Shown here: piece by piece, positions 1,978-52,144 of the stretch
Position numbering within the stretch: the stretch's first letter is position 1
How the letters are laid out: each line of letters opens with the position of its first letter
Source of the DNA: Verrucomicrobiia bacterium
GTDB lineage: Bacteria > Verrucomicrobiota > Verrucomicrobiia > Verrucomicrobiales > DEV007
DNA: 64,000 nt
Assembly: GCA_030425385.1 (NCBI GenBank)
Contig: JAUIAH010000014.1
Span: forward strand, 1-64,000
Reading direction: 5' to 3'
Program-made: the position numbers and the translations under genes
Notes under the pieces: model-generated
Told to the model about the DNA's origin: nothing
Seen by the model: only the letters and a program-made list of their open reading frames with translations
Databases searched by the model: none

Positions 1978-2003
1978 AAGGCCTCAAAATTTCATGAGGC
2001 CTT
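1978..2003 (-). terminator. Stem-loop at the end of the recombinase gene
   Basis: A perfect 9-base inverted repeat, AAGGCCTCA ... TGAGGCCTT, with an 8-base loop overlaps the recombinase stop codon. It could end recombinase transcription. No U-run follows on the minus strand, so intrinsic termination is uncertain. The remaining spacer back to the transposase (about 1770-1977) is AT-rich and I see no gene in it. Confidence 0.4.
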
Positions 2004-2766
2004 AATCTAGGTTGGCCACATGACTAGCATTAGGCGCAAAACCCACATAGTGGTTGTAGGTCGTCTGAATGTCATCGCCTAGCCACTCAGCAACGACAGG
2101 AATCGGCGTTCCAGCCTGCACATGCAACGTCGCAAAGGTGTGGCGCATCGTGTGGGAGCGAACCCAGGGCAAGTCACACGATTCAACGAACGTCGTGAAG
2201 CGCTTCTTGAAGTCTGTTCGATAGATGTCCTTCCCATGTCTCACTTTTGGCCGAAACATGAACGGCTTCGGCTTTCCGTAGTCTTTCAGAAATGCAGCAA
2301 AGGTTGAGCCGTAGTGAACCATCCGCGCTTCCTTGTCCTTGGGAATGAACGTATCGGTCTCTGACACTTCACAGATCCCAGGTGTTCGAAACCATGATGC
2401 GCGCGCTTCAATGATCTCACCCTTTCGAAGTCCAAGAAAGAAACCGCAGTGAAGAACGAACCTGAGCTCTGGGTCCGTGCAGCGACTGAGAAGCAGATCC
2501 CGCTCTTCTCGAGTGCAGAAGACCACTCCCTTGCCTCTCTTCACCTTTGGGACCTTCACCGCTTCCATGGGGTGCCTGGCGATCTTCCCTTGCTCAAGGA
2601 GCCAGGAGAAGAAGCCCTGTGTGCGCCTGAGGTAGCCTGAAATGGTACTCTGGGCTTTCTCTTCTTCCCTAAGGCTCTCAATCCATCCATAGATCATCTT
2701 CTCAGTGATCTCATTGGCAAGGGCCGCCCTAAAATCGCGTAAATCTAAGGGTTTCCTTGTGCCCAA
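2002..2766 (-). CDS. Tyrosine recombinase (integrase) abutting tRNA-Pro
   Basis: Phage-type integrase of the tyrosine recombinase family, 254 residues from a TTG at 2766 or 231 from an ATG at 2697. A helical core-binding region (about 20-60, IYGWIESL to FFSWLLEQG) precedes the catalytic domain with Arg114 (GLRKGEI), His205-x-x-Arg208 (HTMRH) and Tyr240 (NHY). The usual LGH motif reads LGD, so the second conserved His/Trp is Asp231. The same frame stays open upstream through the whole tRNA gene to 3033, so its true start is unclear. Either the protein starts just inside the element, as I assume, or the native N-terminus was lost at the junction. Family assignment is firm; activity and start are not. 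Confidence 0.75.
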   Translation of the reverse strand: MGTRKPLDLRDFRAALANEITEKMIYGWIESLREEEKAQSTISGYLRRTQGFFSWLLEQGKIARHPMEAVKVPKVKRGKGVVFCTREERDLLLSRCTDPELRFVLHCGFFLGLRKGEIIEARASWFRTPGICEVSETDTFIPKDKEARMVHYGSTFAAFLKDYGKPKPFMFRPKVRHGKDIYRTDFKKRFTTFVESCDLPWVRSHTMRHTFATLHVQAGTPIPVVAEWLGDDIQTTYNHYVGFAPNASHVANLD

Positions 2767-2790
2767 ACCCCTTATTTCATAGGGTTTGGG
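2762..2790. repeat. Inverted repeat between tRNA-Pro 3' end and integrase
   Basis: CCCAAACCC and GGGTTTGGG form a perfect 9-base inverted repeat around an 11-base loop, starting directly beyond the encoded CCA end of the tRNA. It could be the tRNA terminator, a recombinase core site at the attachment junction, or both. Position and symmetry are seen; the function is inference. Confidence 0.5.
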
Positions 2791-2791
2791 G

Positions 2792-2869
2792 TGGTCGGGG
2801 TGGCGGGATTCGAACCCACGACCTTTGCACCCCCAGTGCAACGCGCTAACCAGGCTGCGCCACACCCCG
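2792..2869 (-). tRNA. tRNA-Pro (anticodon GGG)
   Basis: The minus strand folds as a complete tRNA. The acceptor stem is CGGGGTG/CACCCCG, the D stem GCGC/GCGC, the anticodon stem TTGCA/TGCAA around a CTGGGGG loop giving anticodon GGG, and the T arm carries TTCGAAT. A discriminator A is followed by an encoded CCA (2794-2792). An integrase frame runs through this gene in the same direction, but the intact cloverleaf argues that the tRNA is the real gene here and is probably the attachment site of the neighbouring element. Confidence 0.93.
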
Positions 2870-3020
2870 ACGTGGGGGGAAATTCCCAGGAAATGACCGT
2901 TTCGCAAGCATCTTTTGCAGAACTTGAGCCCCCGATTGGCGCCCGCATGAGAGGTGGAATGGTTAGAAAGTGTGAAATTTCTGGTTCCCGTGGTCGGTAA
3001 ATCGGGTAAAAGTCCTGACG

Positions 3021-3623
3021 ATGATGTTCTCAACCCGCCGATTCCTTTGCCTGGCGCTGACGCTGTGGGCCGCGCTGCTTACCTCCGCCTCGGCCTTCCG
3101 CACTGTCGTCATCGATGCCGGCCATGGGGGAAAGGATGACGGCGCCAAACGCTATGGCGTGAAGGAGAAAGATCTGAATTTGGACACGGCCAAGCGTTTG
3201 GAAAAGATCCTCCAGCGCAAAGGCTTTCACGTCGTCATGACGCGACGCACCGACAAATTTCTACCATTGCAACAACGCGCCAAGATTGCCAATCGCTATC
3301 AAGATGCGGTCTTTGTCAGTATCCATTACAACGCGCACAAGAACACCTCGGTCAAGGGGATCGAGACCTTCTACGCGACCCTCGAAGGACGCAAACTCGC
3401 GGCGGGCATTCAGGATCTCCTCACCACGCGGATCAAACAGACGCGCGATCGCGGCATCAAGATCGGGAAACAGTATGCGGTGCTCAATAAAACGCGCATT
3501 GTTAGTGTGCTCGTCGAGGGTGGCTTTATCAGCAATCCCTGGGAACGGCGTCGGCTCAACGGCGCGTGGTATCGTCAGATGGTAGCGGAACAAATTGCCA
3601 AAGGCATCCTCATTCACCGGTAA
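3021..3623 (+). CDS. N-acetylmuramoyl-L-alanine amidase (Amidase_3)
   Basis: An exported zinc amidase that cleaves the bond between N-acetylmuramic acid and L-alanine in peptidoglycan. The first 25 residues are a signal peptide ending near SASAF. The Amidase_3 fold is shown by the zinc ligands His in DAGHGG, Glu in KEKDLNL and His in SIHYNA, and by the catalytic Glu in VLVEGGFISN. At 200 residues it is a bare catalytic domain with no SPOR, LysM or AMIN attachment region, so periplasmic targeting would depend on the catalytic domain or partners. The start is one of two adjacent ATG codons. It lies just outside the tRNA-associated island and points away from it, convergent with the flippase gene. 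Confidence 0.92.
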   Translation: MMFSTRRFLCLALTLWAALLTSASAFRTVVIDAGHGGKDDGAKRYGVKEKDLNLDTAKRLEKILQRKGFHVVMTRRTDKFLPLQQRAKIANRYQDAVFVSIHYNAHKNTSVKGIETFYATLEGRKLAAGIQDLLTTRIKQTRDRGIKIGKQYAVLNKTRIVSVLVEGGFISNPWERRRLNGAWYRQMVAEQIAKGILIHR

Positions 3624-10225: not shown

Positions 10226-10588
10226 TCAAGAGGATTCTTTCTCTTCGGACGGACTTTCGCTCGCATCGCCTCCCTCCCCTTTGGGTGTGGTGCTGGCAAT
10301 GGCGGATTTCTCGAACTCGATCTTCACGTTATCCGCCACCTTCACCATCAACGTGCGCTCCTTAACATTGGTCACGAGTCCATGAATCCCCGCGCTCGTG
10401 ACGACTTTATCACCAACCCTGAGCTGCGCCACGCGGGCCTCCAGTTCCTTCTGACGCTGCCGCTGAGGACGGATCAGGAGGAAATACATGATGACAAACA
10501 TCAGAATCATCATGATCAGCCCAGAATAGGGATTTCCCTGCGGCGGGGCTTGTGCCGCAATAATGCTAACAATTTCCGTAGATCTCAC
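10226..10588 (-). CDS. yajC: Preprotein translocase subunit YajC
   Basis: The small accessory subunit of the SecDF-YajC complex, 120 residues. One membrane helix (MMILMFVIMYFLLI) is followed by the hallmark RPQRQRQKE and a YajC domain with LRVGDKVVTSAGIHG. The C-terminal tail is acidic and low-complexity (GEGGDASESPSEEKESS). I set the start at the GTG at 10588 because it overlaps the tgt stop codon as GTGA, the signature of translational coupling. The frame stays open upstream inside tgt, but that part is the tgt sequence read in another frame. It lies between tgt and secDF, the conserved order in many bacteria. Confidence 0.93.
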   Translation of the reverse strand: MRSTEIVSIIAAQAPPQGNPYSGLIMMILMFVIMYFLLIRPQRQRQKELEARVAQLRVGDKVVTSAGIHGLVTNVKERTLMVKVADNVKIEFEKSAIASTTPKGEGGDASESPSEEKESS

Positions 10589-11715
10589 GTGGCTTGGTCG
10601 GATTGGTGGTATTGAGTCATAAACTCCTCGCGAAACGTAGTGAAACACGAGGAATCTAGCGCTTCCCGAGCCCGCCGCGCGAGGGACAGATAGAAATGCA
10701 GATTATGCAGAGAAATCAACCGCAAACCCAGGATTTCATTGGCCTTTAATAAATGGCGTAAGTAGGCCCTACTGAACCCCTTGCGACACGGATAGGAATT
10801 GGAGTCCTCCTCGATCGGAGAGGTGTCTTTGGCAAAGCGCTCGTTCTTCAGATTGATCGGTCCACGCGCCGTGAGGGCTGTTCCGTGGCGCGCCAAACGC
10901 GTCGGCAAGACGCAATCAAAGAGATCGATCCCGCGCCCGATCATCTCCACGAGTTGAGGCGGCGTGCCCAAGCCCATCGCATAGCGTGGCTTGTCCACAG
11001 GAAGGAAGGGCTCGGCATTCTCTACGGCACGAAACATCTCCTCCTCGGGTTCGCCCACGCTCACGCCGCCCACGGCATACCCATCGAGATCAAGGTCTAC
11101 CAGCGCCTTGGCAGAAGCCTCCCGCAGATCCGCATAGATGGATCCCTGAACAATTCCGAAATGGAGCTGCCGCTCCGGCGCATGAGCCTCCGTCCAGTCC
11201 TTGCACCGCTGCGCCCAGCGTGTCGTCAGCCCCAGACTCTTCTCCGCATAGTCCCGATCACAAGGATACGGCGGGCACTCGTCGAAATACATCGCGATGT
11301 CCGAGCCCAAGGTGGCCTGAATCTCCATGGAAATCTCTGGCGACAACAGCATCCGTGCCCCATTCAGGTGATTCTGAAACGCTACCCCTTCTTCCGTGAT
11401 CTTGCGCAACTTTGCTAGGGAGAACACCTGGTAACCGCCACTATCCGTCAGGATGGGCCGATCCCACCGCATGAACTCATGCAGGCCTCCGAACTCGCGG
11501 ATCACCTCCAACCCCGGTCGCAGATGCAAATGATAGGTGTTTCCCAAGATGACTTCCGCATCCAACTCATCTTCCAGTTCCTCGGGAGAAACCGCCTTCA
11601 CCGTCCCCTGAGTCCCCACCGGCATGAAGGTCGGCGTCTGAATGACCCCATGTGCCGTGGTCAGACGACCACGACGCGCCTTCGATTGGGGATCGGTTGA
11701 AAGAAGCTCGAACAC
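10585..11715 (-). CDS. tgt: Queuine/preQ1 tRNA-guanine transglycosylase
   Basis: Exchanges guanine at the wobble position of GUN-anticodon tRNAs for the queuosine precursor, 376 residues. Catalytic residues are present: TDSGGYQVFSL with the base-recognition Asp, and GIDLFDCVLPTR with the nucleophilic Asp. The C-terminal zinc site is odd. Where the family normally has Cys-x-Cys-x2-Cys followed by His, this protein reads SNSYPCRKGFSRAYL, so only the third cysteine (310) remains with the His in SLHNL (337), and one residue is inserted. It is the first gene of the tgt-yajC-secDF operon. Assignment is firm; metal binding is uncertain. Confidence 0.95.
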   Translation of the reverse strand: MFELLSTDPQSKARRGRLTTAHGVIQTPTFMPVGTQGTVKAVSPEELEDELDAEVILGNTYHLHLRPGLEVIREFGGLHEFMRWDRPILTDSGGYQVFSLAKLRKITEEGVAFQNHLNGARMLLSPEISMEIQATLGSDIAMYFDECPPYPCDRDYAEKSLGLTTRWAQRCKDWTEAHAPERQLHFGIVQGSIYADLREASAKALVDLDLDGYAVGGVSVGEPEEEMFRAVENAEPFLPVDKPRYAMGLGTPPQLVEMIGRGIDLFDCVLPTRLARHGTALTARGPINLKNERFAKDTSPIEEDSNSYPCRKGFSRAYLRHLLKANEILGLRLISLHNLHFYLSLARRAREALDSSCFTTFREEFMTQYHQSDQAT

Positions 11716-11904
11716 AAGGGCGACTAACCAGGCCAGACCCGAGGGGTGGTCAAGTCCCCAAGCGCAAATTCACAAAGGTAAGAAGGCCGCCCCCGTACCT
11801 TTCGCTGGGCGATTGCGTTGTAACGGCCGGACCTGCTGCGGCGCCGCAGTCCTCACGCGAAGTCACGCGCCACCTCAAAACACCAACCCAAACCCGTTCA
11901 AACC

Positions 11905-13077
11905 ATGAAGACACCCCTGCATCCCCACCCCTTCGCCGGCCGATGTCGACTCCTTCTCGGATGGCTGACCCTTTGGATCACTGCCTTCGGCGTCCTTGCC
12001 CAGGATGCCGCACCTTGTCACGGCATCGTTCAGAAGATCGTCCAACGCGACGGCACCATCACCTATCAACTAATCTGTGAGGGCGAGTGCCCAGACGGCG
12101 GCCGCTGCGCCCCGCGTCGTTCACAAAACCACCACGGCGGCATCCGCGAATGGTGCGGCTGTGGCGAGCAAGAGCCCCAACATTGTCACATCGTCCTCTA
12201 CCGTCCTGGGCCAGGCGAAGGCGGCGGCGAACACCGCGTCTTCTGCGCGGGCACCTGCCCCGATGGGCATCGCTGCCAGCTGCAAGAAGTGCTCATTCAG
12301 GAAACCGACGGACACCGCGTGTTCCATCTCAGGTGCCTTTGCCCGGGTGAGAATGAACCACATCCTGACGACCAAAGCACTCCCGATCCCACCAACGACG
12401 ACGACGACGAGGCTCCCTGCTGCGATGATGCCAAGCCTTGCAAAGGCTACGTTCAGAAAGTCGTGCAAGCCGACGGCACGGTCACGTTTCAGTTAGGCTG
12501 TCGCGGCACCTGCCCGGATGGACGCCCCTGCCAAACTCACCGTCGCGAGAATCACCATGGCGGCATTCGCGAATGGTGTGGTTGTGAGGACACCGAACCA
12601 CGTGGTTGCCACATCGTTCTCTACCGGCCCGGCAGAGGCGAAGGCGGTGGCGAGCCCCGCGTCTTCTGCGCAGGCGCTTGCCCCGACGGCCGCGCCTGCC
12701 GCATCCAGGAAACCCTTGTCGCCCAGGCCGATGGCACCAAGGTCTTTCGTTACACCTGTGAGTGCCCTGACAATGAAGCAGCAGCTGATTTGCAGACCCC
12801 TAACGCGAAACGTCAGGCACTGGCCCGCCGATTGCACGAAAGCGCTTCCCGTGACCTTCGCGTTGTCGCCATGCCCATGCGCGGCGAACGCCACCTTTGC
12901 CTGGAGTTCACAGGCATTCCGGAGACGCGCTACCGCGTGCTGGTCACATCCGATTTCCAGGAATGGTCGACGGTAGGAGAAGCCTCTCTTCTAGAGAACG
13001 GCCGTTTCCAGTGGATCGATGAGCACTGGATGGATGGCACGCCACGTTTCTACATTGTCGAGGAGATCGACGAGTAG
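11905..13077 (+). CDS. Secreted cysteine-rich protein with four six-cysteine modules
   Basis: I do not know this family. A signal peptide (about 1-32) leads into two 110-residue repeats (38-147 and 179-288), each with twelve cysteines at identical spacing. Each repeat is itself two modules of the pattern C-x19-C-x3-C-x5-C-x15 or 19-C-x-C with a central CPDGxxC, giving four modules and 24 cysteines in all. HHGGIREWCGC and CHIVLYRPG recur in both repeats. An acidic linker (NDDDDEAPCCDD) separates them. The last 80 residues resemble the C-terminal beta domain common on verrucomicrobial secreted proteins (YRVLVTSDFQEW, then TPRFYIVEE). Many disulfides, or metal binding by Cys and His, are likely. 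No neighbour hints at a role. Confidence 0.8.
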   Translation: MKTPLHPHPFAGRCRLLLGWLTLWITAFGVLAQDAAPCHGIVQKIVQRDGTITYQLICEGECPDGGRCAPRRSQNHHGGIREWCGCGEQEPQHCHIVLYRPGPGEGGGEHRVFCAGTCPDGHRCQLQEVLIQETDGHRVFHLRCLCPGENEPHPDDQSTPDPTNDDDDEAPCCDDAKPCKGYVQKVVQADGTVTFQLGCRGTCPDGRPCQTHRRENHHGGIREWCGCEDTEPRGCHIVLYRPGRGEGGGEPRVFCAGACPDGRACRIQETLVAQADGTKVFRYTCECPDNEAAADLQTPNAKRQALARRLHESASRDLRVVAMPMRGERHLCLEFTGIPETRYRVLVTSDFQEWSTVGEASLLENGRFQWIDEHWMDGTPRFYIVEEIDE

Positions 13078-13105
13078 AAAGACTCCGCCATTGGCGCTCA
13101 AAGAC

Positions 13106-13137
13106 AGAGAGGGAACTGCTTCGGTGGTTCCCTCTCT
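13106..13137. terminator. Bidirectional stem-loop between convergent genes
   Basis: AGAGAGGGAAC and GTTCCCTCTCT form an 11-base perfect stem around a 10-base loop containing TTCG. It sits 29 bases after the stop of the cysteine-rich protein gene and 45 bases before the hisF stop, and is followed on the plus strand by a short pyrimidine run. It probably ends transcription from both sides. Confidence 0.75.
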
Positions 13138-13181
13138 TGCCTTTCACATCTCTTCTCCAATGGCCAGGAGTGGCTGGAATG

Positions 13182-13961
13182 CTAACACGTGGCGACCGCT
13201 TGCGCTGGACGCACGGCGATGCCCTGATCGTGTAGGAAAGCTTTGGACTCCGCGATGGTGTATTCGCCAAAGTGAAAGATGCTCGCCGCGAGCACGGCAT
13301 CCGCCTTCCCTTGGGTGAGCCCATCGGCGAGGTGTTGCAAGGTTCCCACGCCTCCACTCGCGATGACTGGAATGTTTACCGCTTCGCTCACGGTCCGCGT
13401 GAGTTCCAGATCGTAACCATCCTTGGTGCCATCGGCATCCATGCTGGTGAGAAGGATCTCTCCAGCGCCGAGCGCTTCCCCACGCTTGGCCCATTCAATG
13501 GCATCGAGGTCGGTGGGATTGCGGCCGCCGTGGGTATAGACGGTCCAACTACCGGAGTCGTTCCGCTTCGCATCGATGGCAAGGACAATGCACTGCACTC
13601 CAAACGCCCGCGCCCCCTCAGCGATCACTTCCGGTCGATTGATCGCTGCCGTATTCACGCTCACTTTATCGGCACCCGCGAGCAGCATGGTGCGCATGTC
13701 GTCCACCGTGCGAATCCCCCCACCCACGGTCAATGGCATGTGGCACTGACGAGCAGTTTCCTCTACCACATCCACCATGGTGCGACGCGCGTCGGAGGAA
13801 GCGGTGATGTCGAGAAACACGAGTTCGTCCGCACCCTGACGTTCATACTCCATGGCGCACTCCACCGGGTCTCCGGCGTCTCGCAGGTCCACAAACTGCG
13901 TGCCCTTGACGACCCGTCCATCGGTAACATCAAGGCAAGGAATGATTCGTTTGGTCAACAT
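13182..13961 (-). CDS. hisF: Imidazole glycerol phosphate synthase subunit HisF
   Basis: The cyclase half of the HisHF enzyme, which uses ammonia from HisH to make imidazole glycerol phosphate and AICAR in histidine synthesis. It is a 259-residue (beta/alpha)8 barrel of the usual length. Catalytic Asp11 (IIPCLDV) and the second Asp (LAIDAKR, about 130) are present, as are the phosphate-binding motifs VGGGIRT and IASGGVGT. No other his gene is nearby, so histidine genes are dispersed. Only 23 bases separate its start from that of the divergent recombinase gene, and I see no clear ribosome site. Confidence 0.96.
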
Positions 13962-22919: not shown

Positions 22920-24143
22920 CTAGCGCTGGTCAGCGCGTAGGCTGGTGGCGAGCTCCGGGCGGCCAATGGCTTCGTAGCATTGGATCAAGGTGGCCTTGGC
23001 ATCCGCCCGGTCAGGCTGCTGTGCGAGGACAGTCTCAAGATCGGGGATGGCCTCGCGCCAGCGCCCTGTCAGTGCGCGGATTTCTCCACGCGTGGCGGCA
23101 TACTCAAAACGCACGGGAAGATCGCCTGCCGCTTGAACCGCTTGCTCTGCCAACTCGGCCGCGCGCTCGAGATCGATCCGCTCTTCGGCATGACTGAAGG
23201 CCCAGGCGAGGTTGTTCATCAGCGCATGCGCTTCGGGAAAACGTGAGAGCCCCTCCTCGCACAGGGTGATCGCCTTCTCCCATGCACGTTCGTCACACGC
23301 GAGGCCACTGAGGACTTGATAGAGTTCCAAGCTGGGTGTGGAACTTTCCTTCCAGGCGCTTTCTAGCAGACGTCGAACGCGCAGACTTAGAGTAGGCTCC
23401 TCTCCCAAAGCGACGAGTCGCCGATAGGTCTTCCGATGCGTGGGATCAAGTTTAAGAATCGCCTCACAGGCTTGCAACACGTTATCCGCGGATGGATCCG
23501 TGAGACGCTGCTCATAGAGATGCACTAACAGGGCATCATAACAGGGATCGGCTCGCACCAGACGACCACGTTGGAGGATCGCCTCCGCGGCCACATCGTC
23601 TCCAAGGAGCATCTTGGCCTCGGCCCAGAGCGCGCGCGCTTCCACGTCGCGCGGGTGCACGCGAGCCTGATCACGATAGCGCTCGATCACTGTAAGAGCC
23701 TGTTCCTTCATATCGGCTTCCTTGCCGGTGGCCTGATAGAGATTGGCGAGGGCGATGCCTAAGGTGGGATTGAGAGAGATGGCATTCTCCAGGGAGGCGA
23801 TCGCTTCCTCCGTGCGCCCAGCAAAGAGGTGAAGTTGGGCGAGCAAGGCCTGCGCCTCGGAATGAGACGGCGTTTCCGACACCAGCATTTCCAGCCCTTC
23901 CTGAATCTCGGTCAGGCGGGACACGCGATCTTCTGACCGCCAGAGCCGCATGTACTCGCTGAAGGCATCTTCCTCTTGCTCGGCCACCTCTTGGCGCCCC
24001 TCCCACTTCCCAAATCCCATCCAGACACCAAAGCCCAGACAAACGATGGAGAAGACGATCGTTAGAGTCCGCCCAAAGCGACGGACTCGGCGGCGACGCG
24101 AAATGGTCTTGCGACGCGAAGAGGTTTCAGGGGAACGACTCAT
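22920..24143 (-). CDS. Membrane-anchored TPR protein, divergent from the exosortase operon
   Basis: A 407-residue protein with a strongly basic cytosolic start (SRRKTISRRRRVRRFGR), one membrane helix (about 27-46) and then tetratricopeptide repeats over most of the remainder (for example ALLAQLHLFAGRTEEAIASL, and the last near 345-400). The repeat domain is predicted to face the periplasm. TPR proteins commonly scaffold exopolysaccharide and exosortase systems (PrsT-like). It is transcribed away from the VPEM-CTERM gene, with 112 bases between the starts, so the two may share a control region. Confidence 0.85.
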   Translation of the reverse strand: MSRSPETSSRRKTISRRRRVRRFGRTLTIVFSIVCLGFGVWMGFGKWEGRQEVAEQEEDAFSEYMRLWRSEDRVSRLTEIQEGLEMLVSETPSHSEAQALLAQLHLFAGRTEEAIASLENAISLNPTLGIALANLYQATGKEADMKEQALTVIERYRDQARVHPRDVEARALWAEAKMLLGDDVAAEAILQRGRLVRADPCYDALLVHLYEQRLTDPSADNVLQACEAILKLDPTHRKTYRRLVALGEEPTLSLRVRRLLESAWKESSTPSLELYQVLSGLACDERAWEKAITLCEEGLSRFPEAHALMNNLAWAFSHAEERIDLERAAELAEQAVQAAGDLPVRFEYAATRGEIRALTGRWREAIPDLETVLAQQPDRADAKATLIQCYEAIGRPELATSLRADQR

Positions 24144-24191
24144 GGCTGCGAAAGAGTGGGATGAACGGCACGGCCAGACCGGCCTGTCCGC

Positions 24192-24250
24192 TTGGCAATG
24201 GTTCTACATATATCTTCTATTTGATAATACCACGATTTCCATAATAATTT
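24192..24250 (+). promoter_or_regulatory. AT-rich putative promoter region of the exosortase operon
   Basis: The intergenic DNA between the divergent TPR gene and the VPEM-CTERM gene turns abruptly A+T-rich. TTGGCA (24192-24197) and GATAAT/TAATAC (24223-24230) are present but not at consensus spacing. It is the most promoter-like stretch available for the operon; exact elements are uncertain. Confidence 0.35.
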
Positions 24251-24255
24251 ATGAA

Positions 24256-24921
24256 GTGAAGTCGCCCGCGAAGTCTTTCCCCACTCCTCTCGTCTCTCTG
24301 ATAGCGTTATTCAGCGTCACCTTGCCACTTTGGGCAGCTCCCGTGACCATCTTTGAAGATCCATTCGACGCCGCTCCCAACGCCAACGGATGGACAGAGA
24401 CTCCTGACAGCCGAGTCACTCACGACGGAACCGATGTGCGGTTGCGATCCACCACCGCGGCGACGACGCTTACCCAGATCACCCGCACGATCAATACGGC
24501 GGCATTCACCGATCTCACCCTGACACTGGATGCGTTTCAAGGCCCTGGGTTGTGGGTTGGAGCGGACGACTCTCTGCGAATCATTGCCGATGGAGTCACC
24601 GTTTTCTCTGATGGGGGAGTGTTCTTGGGGTCCGATGGGGACACGAGCACTGGTTTGCTGCTTGCACCATCGCCACCCCAGTCCACCGGCGCCATCGCTA
24701 TCCCAACTCCGGGAGATGGCACGCTGGACCTGACCATCGAAGGGCAAATAAGCGGCGCGACGTTTCTCACTCCTAAAGACTATTTCCTCAGCCATTTCAC
24801 TCTCTCAGGGGAACTCATCGCGGCTGTTCCGGAAATGTCATCTTTCTTCCTTTTGTTAGGATTTGTGATTGGGTTCACTCATTGGCAAACGCGCTTCCGT
24901 CGGCGCTTCCGCGTCGTCTAA
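24256..24921 (+). CDS. VPEM-CTERM (PEP-CTERM-like) sorted surface protein
   Basis: The predicted substrate of the adjacent exosortase, 221 residues. A signal peptide (1-27) is followed by a beta-rich extracellular domain (about 28-180) rich in Thr, Asp and Gly. The C-terminus has a tripartite sorting signal: VPEM at 191-194, a hydrophobic helix (197-209) and an Arg cluster (213-219). The canonical motif is VPEP; here the last Pro is Met. I chose the GTG at 24256 because it gives a proper signal peptide directly; an ATG at 24142 would add 38 residues and overlap the divergent gene. The stop codon abuts the exosortase ATG, implying one operon. Confidence 0.75.
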   Translation: MKSPAKSFPTPLVSLIALFSVTLPLWAAPVTIFEDPFDAAPNANGWTETPDSRVTHDGTDVRLRSTTAATTLTQITRTINTAAFTDLTLTLDAFQGPGLWVGADDSLRIIADGVTVFSDGGVFLGSDGDTSTGLLLAPSPPQSTGAIAIPTPGDGTLDLTIEGQISGATFLTPKDYFLSHFTLSGELIAAVPEMSSFFLLLGFVIGFTHWQTRFRRRFRVV

Positions 24922-26568
24922 ATGGAGGCGGCCTTCACCGCGCTCCTTTCGAACTGGCGACGGATCGCCATCGCTGGAGCGACTGGGCTCGCTTTCAGCC
25001 CGCTTCTCTTGGTGCACTTCCGCGACCTCTGGCAACGCGAACACTATCAGTACTTCCCCATCGTCCTCATCTTCACGGGATTGCTATTGCGCCGCCGTTG
25101 GCGCGAGGCGATCGCAGTGAACCGCCCGTTTACCTGGCCTGACAGAGCCCTCATTGCGTTGTTAGGCGCGGCTGCTGTCGCCGTGCTCGTTCTGGCCACC
25201 GTGAGCTACTCCCCTAATCTTGCGATGCTCGCAGCGATTCTGGCTGCGGGGGCCTTTCTCGTGTTTCACACGCATCGGAGGCACTTGACCAATGCGTTTG
25301 GTATCTGGTGCCTGCTGTGGCTGTTGATTCGCCTTCCGTTTAAATTCGATGAGACGCTCGTCAAGAGCTTCCAGACGCACAGCACGGCATGGAGCAGCCG
25401 CCTGCTCGATCACCTCGGCATCCTTCACCGCACCGATGGTCATGTGCTATGCTTTCCTGGGAAAGAGTTCTTTGTCGATCAGGCCTGTAGCGGCATCATG
25501 TCATTCACGGCACTCTTTGCGGCAGCTGCCCTGCTCATCGTGGGATTGAATCGACCGCTCGTGACCAGTGTGGTCCTTCTCACTTCCGTCTGCTTTTGGA
25601 CCATGGTGATGAACATTACTCGCATCACCTCCGTGGCCATCGGGCATGCGCGATGGGGCATCGACCTCAGTGAAGGTTGGCGGCACGATGCGATCAGTTT
25701 CCTCACCTTTGCAATCGCCATTGGAGGCCTGCTAAGCACCGATGGCCTTCTGCGCTACGGCTTCCATCCCATCCCGCGGCGGAGCCACAAACGACCGCTG
25801 ATTCGGTGGTGGAATCGCTTCGTGCAGTGGGGGCCTCAACTAGCACCTTCTCCATCCGTGACCGTTTCCCGCTCGAAAGCCGCCACCCTCCCGCGCGTGG
25901 TACTCGTGGTCACCGGTCTCTTGGCAAGTTTGCAAGTGAGCGTCCTCGCCCTGCGCCACCAAACGTCGACCCCTGAGTTGAACCGCGTCGTTCTCCCTCA
26001 CGAAAAGCTCACTGCACAGCTCAACGAAGATGCCCTTCGAGGCTTGCCTGGATCTTGGGAATTGATCGATTTCGACACGGTGCGCCGAGATCGCCGTAGC
26101 CCGTGGGGCGCCTACTCTCACATTTGGACCTACCAGAAGCATGGGCAGCTCTTGCAGTTCTCTATCGATTACCCCTTCTACGAGGCACACGATGTGGGTG
26201 AATGTTATGAGAATCGCGGATGGCTTCCCACCCAAAGGAACGTCCTCGGAGCGCATGCCACTTTCGGTCCTGGCACCATGATCGAGATTGATCTCCACAA
26301 ACCAGCGACCAATGAACATGCCTATGCGCTCACGGGGTGCCTGGACCCGTCGGGTGATTGGCTGGCCCTCTTTGGAGCCACCGTCTCTGACACCTTCATG
26401 GAAAAGATCCGGGAACGCTTTGGCGAGCGCCAGACGCCTCACTATCAGATCCAAATCTTCATGGTCACGGCTGAGCGCCTGGCACTCTCTGAAAGGCAGC
26501 AGCTCTATGAAGCCGCGGCGAAGTTTCGTACGGCGTTGGCCCCTCACCTGGAACACGCGCAGCGATGA
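24922..26568 (+). CDS. Exosortase with C-terminal EpsI-like domain (XrtU-like)
   Basis: An integral membrane cysteine transpeptidase of the exosortase/archaeosortase family, which cleaves PEP-CTERM-type signals and anchors the protein to an envelope acceptor. In 548 residues it has about eight membrane helices up to residue 275 with the catalytic triad Cys189 (DQACSGI), Arg234 (MNITRI) and His255 (WRHD). After a basic linker and another membrane segment (about 307-322) comes a soluble EpsI-like domain (about 340-540). Such fusions resemble the XrtU subfamily of Verrucomicrobia and Planctomycetes, but I assign that with caution. It follows the target gene with no gap and overlaps the TPR gene by four bases. 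Confidence 0.9.
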   Translation: MEAAFTALLSNWRRIAIAGATGLAFSPLLLVHFRDLWQREHYQYFPIVLIFTGLLLRRRWREAIAVNRPFTWPDRALIALLGAAAVAVLVLATVSYSPNLAMLAAILAAGAFLVFHTHRRHLTNAFGIWCLLWLLIRLPFKFDETLVKSFQTHSTAWSSRLLDHLGILHRTDGHVLCFPGKEFFVDQACSGIMSFTALFAAAALLIVGLNRPLVTSVVLLTSVCFWTMVMNITRITSVAIGHARWGIDLSEGWRHDAISFLTFAIAIGGLLSTDGLLRYGFHPIPRRSHKRPLIRWWNRFVQWGPQLAPSPSVTVSRSKAATLPRVVLVVTGLLASLQVSVLALRHQTSTPELNRVVLPHEKLTAQLNEDALRGLPGSWELIDFDTVRRDRRSPWGAYSHIWTYQKHGQLLQFSIDYPFYEAHDVGECYENRGWLPTQRNVLGAHATFGPGTMIEIDLHKPATNEHAYALTGCLDPSGDWLALFGATVSDTFMEKIRERFGERQTPHYQIQIFMVTAERLALSERQQLYEAAAKFRTALAPHLEHAQR

Positions 26569-34755: not shown

Positions 34756-36900
34756 TCACTCATTAAGGTCGTTGGTGCGAATGTCTGCGAGCTTATCGGT
34801 GAGTTGTTGACGGAAGGCGGCGACGCGCTTGGCCTGCAGCTGTTGGTGGGCGAGATTGGTGAATTGACCAGGGTCCTTCTCCATGTCGAAGAGTTCGATG
34901 CCTTTGGAGGCGTCCTCTTCGTACTGGATGTAGGCCCAACGGTCTTGTCGCAGGAGGAAGCCTTTCCGCATGGGAGCGACCGAGAAGGCCGTGTCGCGCA
35001 CCTGTGCCTGGGGGTTGTCTAACAAGGCTGAGATGTCTTTGCCTTGGATCCTGTCCGGAACGCTGAGCCCACAGAGGGCGGCGGTGGTAGGAAAGAGATC
35101 CAGCAACTCAACCAGTGAATGGCAAACGGCGGGATCTTTGCCAGGCACACAGATGATGAGCGGCACCGAGGCGGATTCTTCTCGGAGACTCACCTTGGCC
35201 CAAAAGTCGTGTTCGCCTAAGTGATAGCCATGGTCACTGGTAAAGATGACGATGGTTTGATCGGCGATACCGGCGTCTTCTAACGCTTTCATGACAATGC
35301 CGACTTGGGCATCCATGTAGGCGACGGAGGCGTAGTATCCGCCCACTGCTTTCTGTTGGCGCCGCCGATCCATCTGCATGTTACGACTGGTCTTGTAGTT
35401 GATACCCGCTTTGGGAATGTCGTCCCAGTCATTGGCCAATGGCGTAGGCAAGGGATTCCGAGCGTAGGGCTTGAAGGGCTCAAAGTATCGCCTCGGCGCG
35501 ACGAAAGGGACATGCGGTCGGACGAATCCCACGCCGAGCCAGAAGTGCTTTTCCCGGTGCTTCTGAATCCACTCGGCAGCGGTCCTGGCGGCCCGCCCAT
35601 CAGCGTGGGCGAGATCATCGCCATCGGCTTCAACGACGACGAAGGTGTTGCCCCCGACGACGGGTTTCGCGCCATCGGGATTGCCTTCTAACGTTTCTCC
35701 TTCGCCTGGCGCTTTCCATTCTGGCCCTGGCGTATTGAAGCGCTGCGTCCAGGAGGCAGGGTCATCAGCTCCATCATAATCTTTGTCAGGATCGCCTTCC
35801 TCGACTCCTCCCGGAACGCCCATGTGGTAGATCTTGGAAACGCGCGCCGTGTGGTAACCAGCATTCTTAAACAGCTGAGGCCAGGTCTCCCGATCGCCGA
35901 TCTGCGGACGTGGGCTCTTGTAGCCAAGCACTCCGGTCGCATGCGGATAATAGCCGGACAGCAATGAGGCACGCGAGGGGCCGCAGTAAGTTCCCTGACA
36001 GTAGGCACGCGTGAAGCGTGTGCCGCGGGCGGCGATCGCATCGATGTTAGGTGTTTGGCAATGGGCGTTCCCGTAGCACGAGAGCGCGGTCGACGTGAGG
36101 TCATCCGAGATGATGAAGAGCACATTGTAAGGCTGCTGCGTGTCGAGAACCGTGAGAACGGGGCGGTGATCGGAAGCGACCCTCTCTGGCACGACTTCAG
36201 ACGACACGAAATGAAAGTCCTTCTTCGGCCGATACAGCACGTAATCGATTTCGCGGTCGGGATTGTTCGCGGGAAAGGTGAATTTGTCCGTCTCAACATT
36301 AGGGTCGATCCACCCAGCCTCTCGCAGCACCTTCATTGGCGGCGAGTGCGGCGAGGAATTGAAGTCACCGGCCAGAATGACCGGGGCGGTGATGCCCCGG
36401 AAACGCTCTGCGATGACCTTGGCTTGGGCCAGGCGTTCCGCCTTCGTCGCGTAGAGATGATTGCCGACAAAGAAGAGTGGTTTCTCAAAGTTTGGCACCT
36501 GGATCCGTGCGATCACGAGAGCGCGCGATTCTGTCTCACCCGGCAGTTTAAGATTCTCTCGAGAAAGGATAGGGTGTTTTGATAGGATCATTTGCCCATA
36601 CTCGCCACCGGCATAGTCCATGAACTTGCCGAAGCATGCATGCATGCCAGTAAGCTCCGCCAACGCGGCGGACTGGTCGACGCCTCCGGTGCGGGTGGTC
36701 TTGATATCAATCTCTTGCAACGCCACCAAATCGGGCTGCTGGGCGGTGATCACCTTCGCAAGGCGCTCGAGATCCAGGCGCCCATCCATGCCCTCTCCGT
36801 GATGAATATTATAGGAAAGAATGCGCAATTCTTCCGACAACGCCGGGACCATGAGCAAGAGCACCAGGCCCAGAATTCGAAGGCAGTTTCTGTGGATCAT
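34756..36900 (-). CDS. Secreted fusion: endonuclease/exonuclease/phosphatase domain plus sulfatase
   Basis: Two hydrolases in one 714-residue exported chain. After a signal peptide (about 1-22) comes an endonuclease/exonuclease/phosphatase domain (about 24-253) with Asn31 (SYNIHH), Glu63 (LQEID), GNHLY, GDFN (179-181) and SDHRPV (Asp244, His245), all the usual catalytic residues. It runs directly into an iduronate-2-sulfatase-like domain (about 257-714) with ISDDL, the formylglycine site Cys306 in CGPSR, and TSDHGYHLGEHDFWAK. The junction LTVLDTQQPYNVLFIISDD leaves no linker. The start is the ATG at 36900. The reading frame is continuous, so this is a true fusion unless the sequence has an error at the junction. 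Confidence 0.9.
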   Translation of the reverse strand: MIHRNCLRILGLVLLLMVPALSEELRILSYNIHHGEGMDGRLDLERLAKVITAQQPDLVALQEIDIKTTRTGGVDQSAALAELTGMHACFGKFMDYAGGEYGQMILSKHPILSRENLKLPGETESRALVIARIQVPNFEKPLFFVGNHLYATKAERLAQAKVIAERFRGITAPVILAGDFNSSPHSPPMKVLREAGWIDPNVETDKFTFPANNPDREIDYVLYRPKKDFHFVSSEVVPERVASDHRPVLTVLDTQQPYNVLFIISDDLTSTALSCYGNAHCQTPNIDAIAARGTRFTRAYCQGTYCGPSRASLLSGYYPHATGVLGYKSPRPQIGDRETWPQLFKNAGYHTARVSKIYHMGVPGGVEEGDPDKDYDGADDPASWTQRFNTPGPEWKAPGEGETLEGNPDGAKPVVGGNTFVVVEADGDDLAHADGRAARTAAEWIQKHREKHFWLGVGFVRPHVPFVAPRRYFEPFKPYARNPLPTPLANDWDDIPKAGINYKTSRNMQMDRRRQQKAVGGYYASVAYMDAQVGIVMKALEDAGIADQTIVIFTSDHGYHLGEHDFWAKVSLREESASVPLIICVPGKDPAVCHSLVELLDLFPTTAALCGLSVPDRIQGKDISALLDNPQAQVRDTAFSVAPMRKGFLLRQDRWAYIQYEEDASKGIELFDMEKDPGQFTNLAHQQLQAKRVAAFRQQLTDKLADIRTNDLNE

Positions 36901-36907
36901 AGCAATT

Positions 36908-38794
36908 TCAGGAAGACATCCGAGAGGCGCGCCACCCACCTGGGCGACGTTGAAAGGCCCACCACTCGATGATGAGGACCATCAGTCCGAAAGCTGCCAA
37001 CCAGTGCCAGAGAGGGCGGTCCGTCTCGATGGTCTCGTCAGCAGCACGCACCCGTGCTTCTCGAAAGGCAATTGATTCGACTTGTGTCAGGGTGGTTTCA
37101 GCCGCGGAAAGGAGGCTCGCACTCACTTCGCCAGGGCCCTTATCATAACGATACCGTCCCACTCTCCTCGCCGACAGACCTGGCACATATCCCGAGGGGT
37201 CACTGGTGAGGGACACACGTCCTCCCTCGCCAGGCAGCGTGACCTCCACCGTTTGATTGCGTAGCCCAAGGGCAAAGCCTGGCAGAATTCCTGTCGCCAA
37301 CGCTTCCGCTTCCGATAGGCCTGCCCGTTGGCGAGCGATCTCAACGAGATTGGCGACGAAGACCGGAAATCCAACGCGGTAGGGAAAGGTCGAACGCTCG
37401 GGGTGAAAGAACGCGTACAGGTCCAGCGCGTGCTCCTCACGCTTTTCCACCAGGAGGGGGCCCCTCTGACCGTGAAGGAGGATGTCGTACCCTCGATTCA
37501 CAAAGGTCCCCTCTTGCAGATCCTGAGCGATCGGTTCATCCAAGAAGACCACATTACTGAAATCCACGTGTTGGAAGAGAGGGGCATCGCGTCTCCAATC
37601 AATCGCCTGGTGCGGCGACGGCTCTCCCATAGTCACCAACTCCTGGAGGTCCTCCGGAATCTGATTGAACCGCACGCGCATGGGAGCGGCCTCGTCTGCC
37701 GGGCCATCCGTGATCACCAAGTCAAACTGATCTGGCGAAACATTTGGGCCTGGAAAGAGATTCACGTCTTCGATCGATTGCAGGGCATGGCGCAGCGCGC
37801 CCAAGCTCTCTGAGGCATGAATGGCCAAGGGGCGCAGCGGCGGCAACTGGATGGCGGCAACATTGTCAGACGTCAACGCATCCACAGGAGCATTGGGAAT
37901 GAGTTCGAACTCCAAGTCGCGCCGTTCATGAGCGCTAACCTGGAAAAGGAGTCGGGCAGCACGCCCGGGCTTCGCCGTGACAATCTCCGAAGCCAGCGGT
38001 TCATCTTCCGCTGCGTTGGCGAGTCGCATGAGGAGTGCTCCACTCAACTCCGCTTCCTTCGATCCCACCACTTCGACAAAGATCTCCCATGCCCCCTCAC
38101 GATCGCGGCGTGCGCGGCATGCGGTGATTCCTATGTTAGGAGCCGGTGACGCGATCTTCTGAAACTGGATCCGAAATGGCAAATCGAGAGCAGCCCGATC
38201 AGGGACATTTCCATCCGTGAGAAGCATCACCTCCTCGAATGGCGCTCCACGCCCAAGAGCCTGCACCATGCGGACGCCATGCTCCACTGAAGAGGGCACC
38301 TCTTCAACCACGATCGCCTCAAGGGCATTGCGAAGACGTTGGCGATCACTGGTGAAGCCGCAACGTTGGCGCGCCGTGTCACTGAAGCTGATGATGGCCA
38401 ACTCTTGGTCAGGCAAGAGCCCAGCGATGAGATCATTCACGCGCTCTTTGGCCAGGTCCAGACGTGTCTTACCGCCCCGCCTCTCCACGGCAGCCATGCT
38501 AGCAGAACAATCAATCAGGACGGGCAAACGCGACACGCGATCATCAGACCCTCGCATGAATGGCTGCATGGCGGCGAGAATGAGCAAAGCGAGAAGCAGC
38601 AGTTGCAACAGAAGCAAGAGGTTGCGTTTGAATCGTTGGAAAGGTGCGTTCACCCGCTGATCATCCAGCACCCGACGCCACAGCACGAGTGACGGCACCG
38701 TGACTTGAGGGCGCTTCAACTTAAGGAAGTAGAGCGCAATGAGCGGGAGGGCGAGAAGGAAGAGCCAAGCGGCACTGGGAGAGAAGAAAGACAC
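36908..38794 (-). CDS. BatA-like VWA-domain membrane protein (cluster 2)
   Basis: A 628-residue protein with the BatA N-terminal double-helix domain: a first helix (about 8-24, AAWLFLLALPLIALYFLKLK), the VPSLVLWRR segment and a second helix (about 58-77). A von Willebrand A domain follows (about 88-210) with an intact MIDAS start, DCSASM. A long periplasmic-type region and a C-terminal membrane helix (about 597-613) complete it. It is the third gene of a MoxR - DUF58 - BatA operon, 26 bases after DUF58. These sets are linked to stress tolerance or chaperone functions in other bacteria; the target here is unknown. Confidence 0.88.
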   Translation of the reverse strand: MSFFSPSAAWLFLLALPLIALYFLKLKRPQVTVPSLVLWRRVLDDQRVNAPFQRFKRNLLLLLQLLLLALLILAAMQPFMRGSDDRVSRLPVLIDCSASMAAVERRGGKTRLDLAKERVNDLIAGLLPDQELAIISFSDTARQRCGFTSDRQRLRNALEAIVVEEVPSSVEHGVRMVQALGRGAPFEEVMLLTDGNVPDRAALDLPFRIQFQKIASPAPNIGITACRARRDREGAWEIFVEVVGSKEAELSGALLMRLANAAEDEPLASEIVTAKPGRAARLLFQVSAHERRDLEFELIPNAPVDALTSDNVAAIQLPPLRPLAIHASESLGALRHALQSIEDVNLFPGPNVSPDQFDLVITDGPADEAAPMRVRFNQIPEDLQELVTMGEPSPHQAIDWRRDAPLFQHVDFSNVVFLDEPIAQDLQEGTFVNRGYDILLHGQRGPLLVEKREEHALDLYAFFHPERSTFPYRVGFPVFVANLVEIARQRAGLSEAEALATGILPGFALGLRNQTVEVTLPGEGGRVSLTSDPSGYVPGLSARRVGRYRYDKGPGEVSASLLSAAETTLTQVESIAFREARVRAADETIETDRPLWHWLAAFGLMVLIIEWWAFQRRPGGWRASRMSS

Positions 38795-50885: not shown

Positions 50886-52144
50886 TCAAAGATGTCCTTT
50901 CCCTCGGGAAATTTCCTCGCATTACGACGAAATCGTTCGTCATCCTTGGCCACACGCCGCCGCCAACGCGGCCCCTCCCAGGTGAAACTGTCGAGATCAA
51001 TCACTCGCAGATCCCCCTTGGGTCCCACGTGGAAATTGCTCGCCTTGGTGTCTCCGTGAGACCAATGGAGCATTTCTAACACTTCCAGAAAAGACGCCAC
51101 CTCACGCGCTACCTTCGCACGGAGCACGGGCGCATGATTTCCCCGCACCCACTCTTGCAGCGGCTGCCCCTCGTCGATCTCCATGAGCAAACCATCCCGG
51201 TGACCATCCCTGCTCTCCCAATAGGCCAGGGGCTCTGGCGTTTGAAACCCTAACAATCGCAACGCATGGCCGCCCAGCCAGGCACGACGAGCTCGCCCCC
51301 GCGTCCCCCAGTGCGTCTTTATTACCCATCGGTCCCCCCGCGCCACCAGACATTTGCTTGCTTTCTTGAGGGTCACCAAGCGGCTTTCCAAATCCTCCAC
51401 CCGCGCCTTTCTCAATGCCAACAACTCCGGCTCGTCCCAGCCACGCTTCATGACGCACAGCCCTTCTGAATCCTCAATCCTCACAAACGCACTGCATGTG
51501 CGCACACATTTCTTGCGATAGCGGCGCATCCGCTCTCGTTGGACTTTGGGCATGCGACGTCTGACAACCTCAGCATCAGGTTCTCCCAAGGCCCTATCAA
51601 AAGCCTCCCAACGATCCACGGTCACATTTGCTCGCAAGAGGGCCCAGTTCGCCAAGCGATCGCGTTCCCCTCGACAGCACCGATGACTGGAAGCATCGAT
51701 CACCCAAAGGACTCGATCGGCATCAACCAAGAAGTTCCCCAAATGCAGATCGGTCTGCAGGAAACCAGCAGCATGCACACGCCGCACGCACGCGACCAGA
51801 TCTTCCATCGACCAATCCTCACAAGCATCCATGGGGCGGACACTCTCCAGGAACTGCATGGCAACTGCCCAGCTCCCATCCTCGGCCCGCCCTAGGAAAT
51901 AGGGCTGAGGTACGGCGATGCCCGCAGACGCGAGACGCGTCAGCCATGTCCACTCTGCGCGAGCGTCTGCCTCAGCTTTCCGCGGATGGATGTCGTGTTT
52001 GACCAACGCCACGCCGCGCTCTCCCACCCGCGCCCGGAAGACCTCGCGGCGCCCCGGCAATGCTCGCAGTGACCGCTCCCTCGCGATCGTCCATGACTCT
52101 CCAGGTGGAAAGCGCTCCGAGCCCTCGACGATTGTCAGGATCAC
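50858..52144 (-). CDS. Tandem WaaP/Kdo-kinase-like LPS kinase
   Basis: A 428-residue protein with two lipopolysaccharide-kinase-like domains in series. The first (about 1-215) has LVKHDIHPRKAEA, a catalytic loop LQTDLHLGNFLV and VIDASSHR. The second (about 216-428) has WVIKTHWG, SHGDTKASNFHV and LRVIDLDSFTW. Both keep the Asp of the loop and the metal-binding Asp. I set the start at the GTG at 52144: GGGAGG lies seven bases before it and the codon overlaps the upstream stop as GTGA. It probably phosphorylates Kdo or heptose in the LPS core made by the neighbouring enzymes. Confidence 0.83.
   Translation of the reverse strand: MILTIVEGSERFPPGESWTIARERSLRALPGRREVFRARVGERGVALVKHDIHPRKAEADARAEWTWLTRLASAGIAVPQPYFLGRAEDGSWAVAMQFLESVRPMDACEDWSMEDLVACVRRVHAAGFLQTDLHLGNFLVDADRVLWVIDASSHRCCRGERDRLANWALLRANVTVDRWEAFDRALGEPDAEVVRRRMPKVQRERMRRYRKKCVRTCSAFVRIEDSEGLCVMKRGWDEPELLALRKARVEDLESRLVTLKKASKCLVARGDRWVIKTHWGTRGRARRAWLGGHALRLLGFQTPEPLAYWESRDGHRDGLLMEIDEGQPLQEWVRGNHAPVLRAKVAREVASFLEVLEMLHWSHGDTKASNFHVGPKGDLRVIDLDSFTWEGPRWRRRVAKDDERFRRNARKFPEGKDIFDYDRARSAR

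What the first reader, a model, noticed from the sequence alone, without database searches (positions are those of the whole stretch)
11905..13077. Secreted protein built from four six-cysteine modules with exact spacing
Residues 38-147 and 179-288 each hold 12 cysteines at identical offsets (0, 20, 24, 30, 46, 48, 56, 76, 80, 86, 106, 108). Each repeat splits again into two six-Cys modules with a common C-x19-C-x3-C-x5-C core and CPDGxxC. I know no named bacterial domain with this pattern. Such regular disulfide-type modules are uncommon in bacteria and suggest binding, toxin-like or metal-binding function.
Basis: partly seen in the sequence, partly recalled or inferred. Interest (0 to 1): 0.65.

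Follow-up and report, generated by a model that had tools for sequence, protein, structure and literature searches.

The report
Exported protein with disulfide-type repeat modules
A bacterium of the Verrucomicrobiota encodes an apparently exported protein made of twin cysteine-rich modules that fit no family we could find, fused to a tail that many other exported proteins of this phylum carry; what it binds or does is not yet known.

Summary
The 390-aa ORF starts with a signal-peptide-like stretch and has two 111-residue units, each with 12 cysteines at identical offsets. Each unit is an A plus a B module sharing C-x19-C-x3-C-x5-C...C-x-C. In 20,000 shuffles no more than two such cores appeared; four are observed. 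The units are under purifying selection (dN/dS 0.10-0.38 in 14 of 15 pairs).

The family looks like an orphan. The window protein has no Pfam, NCBIfam, PHROG or PDB match. One convincing relative was found: a MAG contig of the same genus with four units (L030). AlphaFold2 gives the unit a confident all-beta fold (pLDDT 95, pTM 0.86) without a convincing structural neighbour.

The C-terminal ~67 aa is an unnamed beta domain with hits in 123 of 288 genomes of the phylum. In 36 of 40 hits read it ends within five residues of the stop. In the own genome it sits on varied signal-peptide-like proteins.

Best reading: an exported, disulfide-stabilised display protein with multivalent binding modules. 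Binding is inferred, not shown. 'Metal' and 'toxin-like' have no support beyond the cysteines.

The parts
11905..12000 (+). signal-peptide-like N terminus, residues 1-32 (MKTPLHPHPFAGRCRLLLGWLTLWITAFGVLA)
   Evidence: read from the translation; a similar start in the relative; no signal-peptide program was available
12016..12162 (+). module A1, residues 38-86, six Cys, C-x19-C-x3-C-x5-C-x15-C-x-C
12184..12342 (+). module B1, residues 94-146, six Cys, C-x19-C-x3-C-x5-C-x19-C-x-C
12346..12438 (+). acidic linker, residues 148-178, with CC at 172-173
   Evidence: 12 of 31 residues are D or E; a CC also precedes units 2-4 of the relative
12439..12585 (+). module A2, residues 179-227
12607..12765 (+). 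module B2, residues 235-287
12874..13074 (+). C-terminal beta domain, residues 324-390, ending at the stop codon; unnamed domain found at the C terminus of many Verrucomicrobiota proteins
   Evidence: model with six strands, pLDDT 79
13100..13144 (+). strong hairpin about 20 bases after the stop, a possible transcription terminator
   Evidence: -25.6 kcal/mol, z -4.66; the simple terminator scan did not list it

Best explanation
An exported, modular display protein. After Sec export (inferred from the signal-peptide-like start) the cysteines are oxidised, plausibly by the VKOR-type enzyme of this genome. Each 111-residue unit folds into one compact all-beta domain made of two six-Cys modules, each of two hairpins. 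Units are strung on acidic linkers in variable number (two here, four in the relative) in front of a C-terminal Fn3/CBM-like sandwich that many signal-peptide-like proteins of this phylum share. The most likely role is multivalent binding of a partner (surface, matrix polymer or another cell) at the cell surface or outside, with the C-terminal domain serving export, attachment or a second contact. Shown here: ORF, module anatomy, coding constraint, different unit numbers, shared C-terminal domain. Predicted: the folds. Inferred: export, disulfides, binding, attachment.
For: Spacing and shuffle test. Purifying selection between units: dN/dS 0.10-0.38 in the 14 of 15 pairs with computable dS, though dS is 1.0-2.4, near saturation. 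12 of 12 Cys columns invariant in five full units, with no stray Cys. AF2 on six sequences: mean pLDDT 95.3, pTM 0.86, all beta, similar strand layout in both halves. VKOR match 56.3 bits, cut-off 27.5, with a CPHC motif in frame. The C-terminal domain ends 15 of 15 fetched carriers of the own genome, each with a signal-peptide-like start by eye, chosen among possible starts; the ten scanned carry unrelated Pfam domains. Unit number 2 versus 4.
Against: No ligand, expression or localisation data. Only 2 of 4 genus genomes have it (2 of 3 among the good assemblies), at different places, so no conserved neighbourhood helps. No structural neighbour suggests a ligand. Binding rests on architecture alone.
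Confidence: 0.45

Rival explanations
1. Structural envelope or matrix protein: the modules form a disulfide-hardened, possibly cross-linked layer or stalk, working like the cysteine-rich envelope proteins OmcA/OmcB of the related Chlamydiae.
For: Very high Cys content, CC pairs in the linkers that could bridge chains, a lone C332, different unit numbers. Most chlamydial outer membrane proteins have orthologues in Planctomycetes, Verrucomicrobia or Lentisphaerae (PMC2811131, passages seen).
Against: No OmcA/OmcB family match. Twelve Cys per unit at fixed places suggest pairs inside the unit. C332 is not conserved in the relative. Present in only 2 of 4 genus genomes.
Confidence: 0.2
2. Secreted inhibitor or antagonist, toxin-like in the loose sense: disulfide modules that block a protease or receptor of a competitor or host.
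For: Disulfide-rich beta modules of this size are a common inhibitor and toxin scaffold (general knowledge). The best structural row was Argos, an EGF antagonist, Z 4.6, rmsd 3.6, 50 residues aligned.
Against: Z 4.6 is in the range the tool calls middling. No inhibitor or toxin family match (sub-threshold rows only, among them a Dickkopf subdomain at E 0.13). The loops NHHGG and CHIV-x-Y are conserved, not variable as might be expected of a target-chasing inhibitor.
Confidence: 0.15
3. Metal-binding or metal-storage protein: cysteines and the invariant NHH and CH residues bind zinc, copper or iron.
For: Invariant N-H-H-G-G and C-H-I-V next to cysteines in all five full units; acidic linkers; weak similarity of 2 of 11 modules to a plant metallothionein profile, best E 0.018.
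Against: AF2 gives a confident beta fold without metal; exported cysteines usually oxidise (general knowledge); the genome has a VKOR match; the metallothionein similarity is weak and absent for the whole protein.
Confidence: 0.1

Closest known systems
Follistatin-N/EGF-like (FOLN) modules of animal extracellular proteins (pattern recalled, no call)
   Same: The C2-C6 part, C-x3-C-x5-C-x15/19-C-x-C, resembles the recalled FOLN pattern C-x4-C-x5-C-x10-C-x-C
   Different: Extra first cysteine, longer last loop, no profile match at E<=10 for the whole protein; no structural match listed
Argos (EGF antagonist, 3cgu)
   Same: All-beta, disulfide-rich (recalled); best VIA row
   Different: Z 4.6, rmsd 3.6, 50 of 112 residues aligned, 6% identity: not evidence of kinship
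Chlamydial cysteine-rich envelope proteins OmcA/OmcB
   Same: Cysteine-rich exported proteins in the same superphylum (PMC2811131, passages)
   Different: No family match; this protein is nearly an orphan
Type IX secretion C-terminal domains of Bacteroidota and PEP-CTERM tags (comparison for the C-terminal domain only)
   Same: Extreme C-terminal domain on many unrelated proteins with signal peptides; T9SS CTD is a beta-sandwich (PMC4804311, title and abstract start in the listing); PEP-CTERM occurs many times per genome, 65 in Verrucomicrobium spinosum (PMC1569441, passages)
   Different: No T9SS or PEP-CTERM family among the sub-0.1 rows; no PEP motif or membrane helix by eye; no export machine identified (uninformative)
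Fn3 / CBM56-like beta sandwiches (C-terminal domain)
   Same: VIA Z up to 7.4, rmsd 3.1, 70 of 75 residues (CBM56), with Fn3 and cytokine-receptor domains close behind
   Different: Below Z 8, which the tool says may be only a common arrangement; Foldseek 0 of 1085 at E<=0.001

Membership tests
FOLN / follistatin-like EGF module | Match to the Pfam profile | tested here: not met
   0 families for the protein and its two units at E<=10; HMMER filters can miss short Cys-rich domains
FOLN / follistatin-like EGF module | Same fold | tested here: inconclusive
   not among the rows shown; absence there is not exclusion
EGF domain | C-x-C as fourth and fifth of six cysteines (recalled) | tested here: not met
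   C-x-C is the fifth and sixth cysteine in all four modules
Three-finger / Argos-type disulfide fold | Structural similarity over the domain | tested here: inconclusive
   Argos Z 4.6, 50 residues
Chlamydial OmcA/OmcB | Family profile match | tested here: not met
   no Pfam or NCBIfam family at E<=10
Chlamydial OmcA/OmcB | Disulfide cross-linked into the envelope | not testable with these tools
   needs biochemistry
Metallothionein-like metal proteins | Profile match | tested here: inconclusive
   Metallothio_PEC in 2 of 11 modules, best E 0.018; none for the whole protein
Type IX secretion CTD (C-terminal domain only) | Extreme C-terminal position on signal-peptide proteins | tested here: met
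   36 of 40 hits end within 5 residues of the stop; 15 of 15 fetched carriers of the own genome end with it and have a signal-peptide-like start by eye
Type IX secretion CTD (C-terminal domain only) | Match to known CTD profiles | tested here: not met
   none of the 4 Pfam and 3 NCBIfam families with E<=0.1 among 13 members is a secretion CTD
Type IX secretion CTD (C-terminal domain only) | SprA translocon in the genome | tested here: inconclusive
   no match, but no control genome rang either

The most novel reading that the evidence does not exclude
The protein joins two undescribed things: a new disulfide-stabilised double-hairpin fold, and a Verrucomicrobiota-wide extreme C-terminal domain that works as the export or cell-surface attachment signal of an unrecognised sorting route, comparable to, but not part of, type IX secretion. 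On this reading the Cys units are one cargo among many.
Probability: 0.3. Interest if true: 0.75.

Novelty: new variant of a known kind. Interest (0 to 1): 0.45.

Why it matters
Disulfide-rich tandem modules are typical of animals and, to my knowledge, uncommon in bacteria. Here one genus seems to have its own, with a confidently predicted fold for which no close solved relative was found, so one structure would settle whether the fold is new. Its C-terminal domain may matter more: an unnamed domain at the very end of proteins in many Verrucomicrobiota genomes is a testable candidate for how this phylum sends proteins to its surface.

Tried and rejected
Considered and rejected: chance spacing (shuffles); a non-coding artefact (dN/dS below 0.4 in every pair with computable dS); lipoprotein (no lipobox before C38, by eye); phage or plasmid origin (no tblastn match at E<=0.01 in 50,697 phage and 72,556 plasmid records; no relative among 9 pattern matches in viral contigs); an operon (the genes on both sides, tgt and hisF by reading, are on the other strand).

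Weak family rows not reaching a cut-off, set aside: for modules, Metallothio_PEC E 0.018, EcpB_C 0.048, DIKK1-2-4 0.13, DUF7648 0.14; for the relative, V-set 0.12, DUF7648 0.24, EcpB_C 0.39. PDB profile hits at E 0.5-0.7, three of four to Rap1A. PADLOC was not searched.

Distant relatives, weak rows read and set aside. Own genome: 4 other rows, E 0.013-0.82; two match only the C-terminal domain, one is antisense to an oxidoreductase-like frame, one is stop-broken. Family search: 6 of 74 genomes at E<=0.01; 2 real (own, G001); G037, G065 and G067 show the C-terminal domain only; G027 lacks the Cys pattern. Order: 7 of 386; 2 real, 5 read as chance. Class, E<=0.001: 1 of 384, the own genome. Phylum: 15 of 387 at E<=0.01; only the own genome convincing. 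The other 14 are matches over 18-45 profile positions, several in short or stop-broken frames; the strongest is G923, E 9.8e-6 over 30 positions in a stop-broken frame; L062 (1.3e-4) is apparently antisense to a helicase-like frame; L063 (2.9e-4, 104-aa frame) was judged by eye only. A diverged form may therefore exist elsewhere; these are samples of larger groups. The genome-contig scans start from exact peptide patterns and reach close relatives only: 0 of 13 and 1 of 92 stretches.

VIA list for the unit: 62 of 1000 chains with Z>=2, none with Z>=5. Disulfide pairs could not be read, since no coordinates are returned. No sigma-70 promoter-like site. Literature, listings only: for the module and 65, 86, 91, 92 for the C-terminal domain showed nothing on either in the rows listed; one search looked for the MAG, and none of the 20 rows shown holds its name. 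Most subscription papers are not held. PMC2811131 and PMC1569441 were seen as passages only.

Slips: some minus-strand loci were first translated on the wrong strand, and L013 at a wrong offset; redone.

Full report
Observation. The ORF at 11905-13077 (+) encodes 390 residues. Its 28 cysteines are C14, 12 in residues 38-146, CC at 172-173, 12 in residues 179-287, and C332. The two sets of 12 have identical offsets. Each set is two six-Cys modules, here called A and B, with C-x19-C-x3-C-x5-C in all four; the next gap is 15 residues in A and 19 in B. Shuffling the protein's own residues 20,000 times gave at most two such cores, once; four are observed.

Homology and constraint. Units 1 and 2 are 64% identical in protein, with third codon positions at 48% identity against 74-75% for the first two. 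dN/dS is 0.10-0.38 in the 14 of 15 unit pairs with computable dS; dS is high throughout and saturated in the other pair. Unit 1 of the window is closest to the partial unit 1 of the relative (70%), while the relative's units 2-4 are 63-73% alike, so at least two units probably predate the split and the array grew or shrank later. All 12 Cys columns are invariant in the five full units. Other invariant residues include N-H-H-G-G, W-C-G-C, E-P and C-H-I-V-x-Y.

Relatives. In the own genome no other row was convincing. In the genus 2 of 4 genomes have it, 2 of 3 of the good assemblies. The second, G001, is record JAACDM010000179.1, titled MAG Verrucomicrobiaceae bacterium isolate HS5BWF_bin.44, which places the window in Verrucomicrobiota. 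Its gene has four units, acidic linkers with CC before units 2-4, and the same C-terminal domain at 36% identity. Its first unit is interrupted by a frame break. Family, order, class and phylum samples (74, 386, 384, 387 genomes) gave no further convincing member (weak rows are told under Tried and rejected). The window protein matched no family in Pfam or NCBIfam at E<=10 or PHROGs at E<=1 and no PDB sequence at E<=1 (unit profile none; module profile four rows at E 0.5-0.7).

Place. The gene stands alone between tgt and hisF (named by reading), both on the other strand, and is followed by a strong hairpin. In G001, G002 and G003 the 3.3-4.9 kb fetched around the upstream side of tgt hold instead, by reading, HAD-hydrolase-, RidA- and acetyltransferase-like frames, and tblastn found no hisF or Cys gene there. 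So the gene lies at a place that differs between species. Gene G+C is 62%, window 57%.

Fold. AlphaFold2 on six window and L030 sequences (five full units and one single module) gave mean pLDDT 95.3 and pTM 0.86 for 112 residues, all beta, with strands 3-10, 16-23, 33-38, 44-49 and 59-64, 75-79, 89-98, 101-109: each module looks like two hairpins. Foldseek: 0 of 310 PDB matches at E<=0.001 and 0 of 456 viral ones. VIA-align's best row is Argos, Z 4.6, rmsd 3.6, 50 aligned. This leaves the fold unassigned; it does not prove it new.

Disulfides or metal. The own genome has a VKOR match over the family cut-off, with a CPHC motif further on in the same frame, as in VKOR-thioredoxin fusions (recalled). 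Together with the signal-peptide-like start and the confident beta fold this favours disulfides. Metal is not excluded.

C-terminal domain. The window's residues 324-390 matched no Pfam family at E<=10 as part of a slightly longer stretch and none in Pfam or NCBIfam at E<=0.1. Among all 13 members of alignment A6 there are weak rows only: F5/8 type C in 4 (best E 0.0014), DUF3999 in 2 (0.0016), PuR_N in 1 (0.0037), LSU in 1 (0.087), and three NCBIfam rows at 0.08-0.09. A two-row profile gave 44 rows in the four genus genomes at E<=1. Of the 30 loci held, 18 contain the Y-x-V-x-x-S-x-D-x-x-x-W motif (in L052 away from the matched place; the two source loci are not caught by this motif), 12 of them within 60 residues of the stop. 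From the listed rows I fetched one strong hit from each of 40 genomes: 36 end within 5 residues of a stop, 37 within 15, one after 28, and 2 continue. The 15 carriers of the own genome that the list showed besides the window all end with the domain and all have a signal-peptide-like start by eye, picked among possible starts. Ten of these, scanned with Pfam, carry unrelated domains such as LamG, TSP3, lamin tail, CotH, matrixin, endo/exonuclease-phosphatase and propeller or NHL repeats. The model of the domain (best pLDDT 79, five models 52-79, two sequences) has six strands, with Fn3/CBM56-like neighbours, Z up to 7.4 but no Foldseek match at E<=0.001. The pattern (unrelated cargo, same very end) is that of a sorting or attachment domain, or of a common terminal binding domain. 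The search for the type IX translocon was uninformative; seven secretin matches exist.

How it works. Export by Sec, oxidation in the periplasm, and display or release of two rigid binding units on acidic linkers, with the terminal sandwich for export, attachment or a second contact. Export, oxidation and binding are inferred. Rivals are a disulfide-hardened envelope layer, an inhibitor, and a metal protein.

Novelty. As a kind, disulfide-rich modular exported proteins are known. The module family, its cysteine framework and perhaps its fold appear undescribed in what I could search; papers were seen as listings and passages only. Interest 0.45: a real orphan with a clear structural test and no function yet; the shared C-terminal domain raises it.

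Noticed in passing
12874-13074: Unnamed extreme C-terminal beta domain with hits in 123 of 288 Verrucomicrobiota genomes, on unrelated signal-peptide-like proteins in the own genome; candidate export or attachment domain.
   Followed up: partly
10585-13961: The tgt neighbourhood differs from the three other genus genomes: here the Cys gene and hisF, there HAD-, RidA- and acetyltransferase-like frames by reading.
   Followed up: partly
L030:6830-7000: Frame break in the first unit of the four-unit relative; assembly error or real is unknown.
   Followed up: no
23950-26568: By reading, an exosortase-like gene (24922-26568) after an ORF with a PEP-CTERM-like end (23950-24921). The Cys protein itself has no such end.
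   Followed up: no
34756-36939: By reading, one ORF looks like an endonuclease/phosphatase-type domain fused to a sulfatase.
   Followed up: no
52141-54012: By reading, one ORF looks like a lipid A acyltransferase fused to a heptosyltransferase-type glycosyltransferase.
   Followed up: no
2002-3033: Integrase-like ORF (by reading) overlapping a tRNA-Pro gene (2792-2869), and a transposase-like ORF at 180-1769: possible remains of a mobile element.
   Followed up: no
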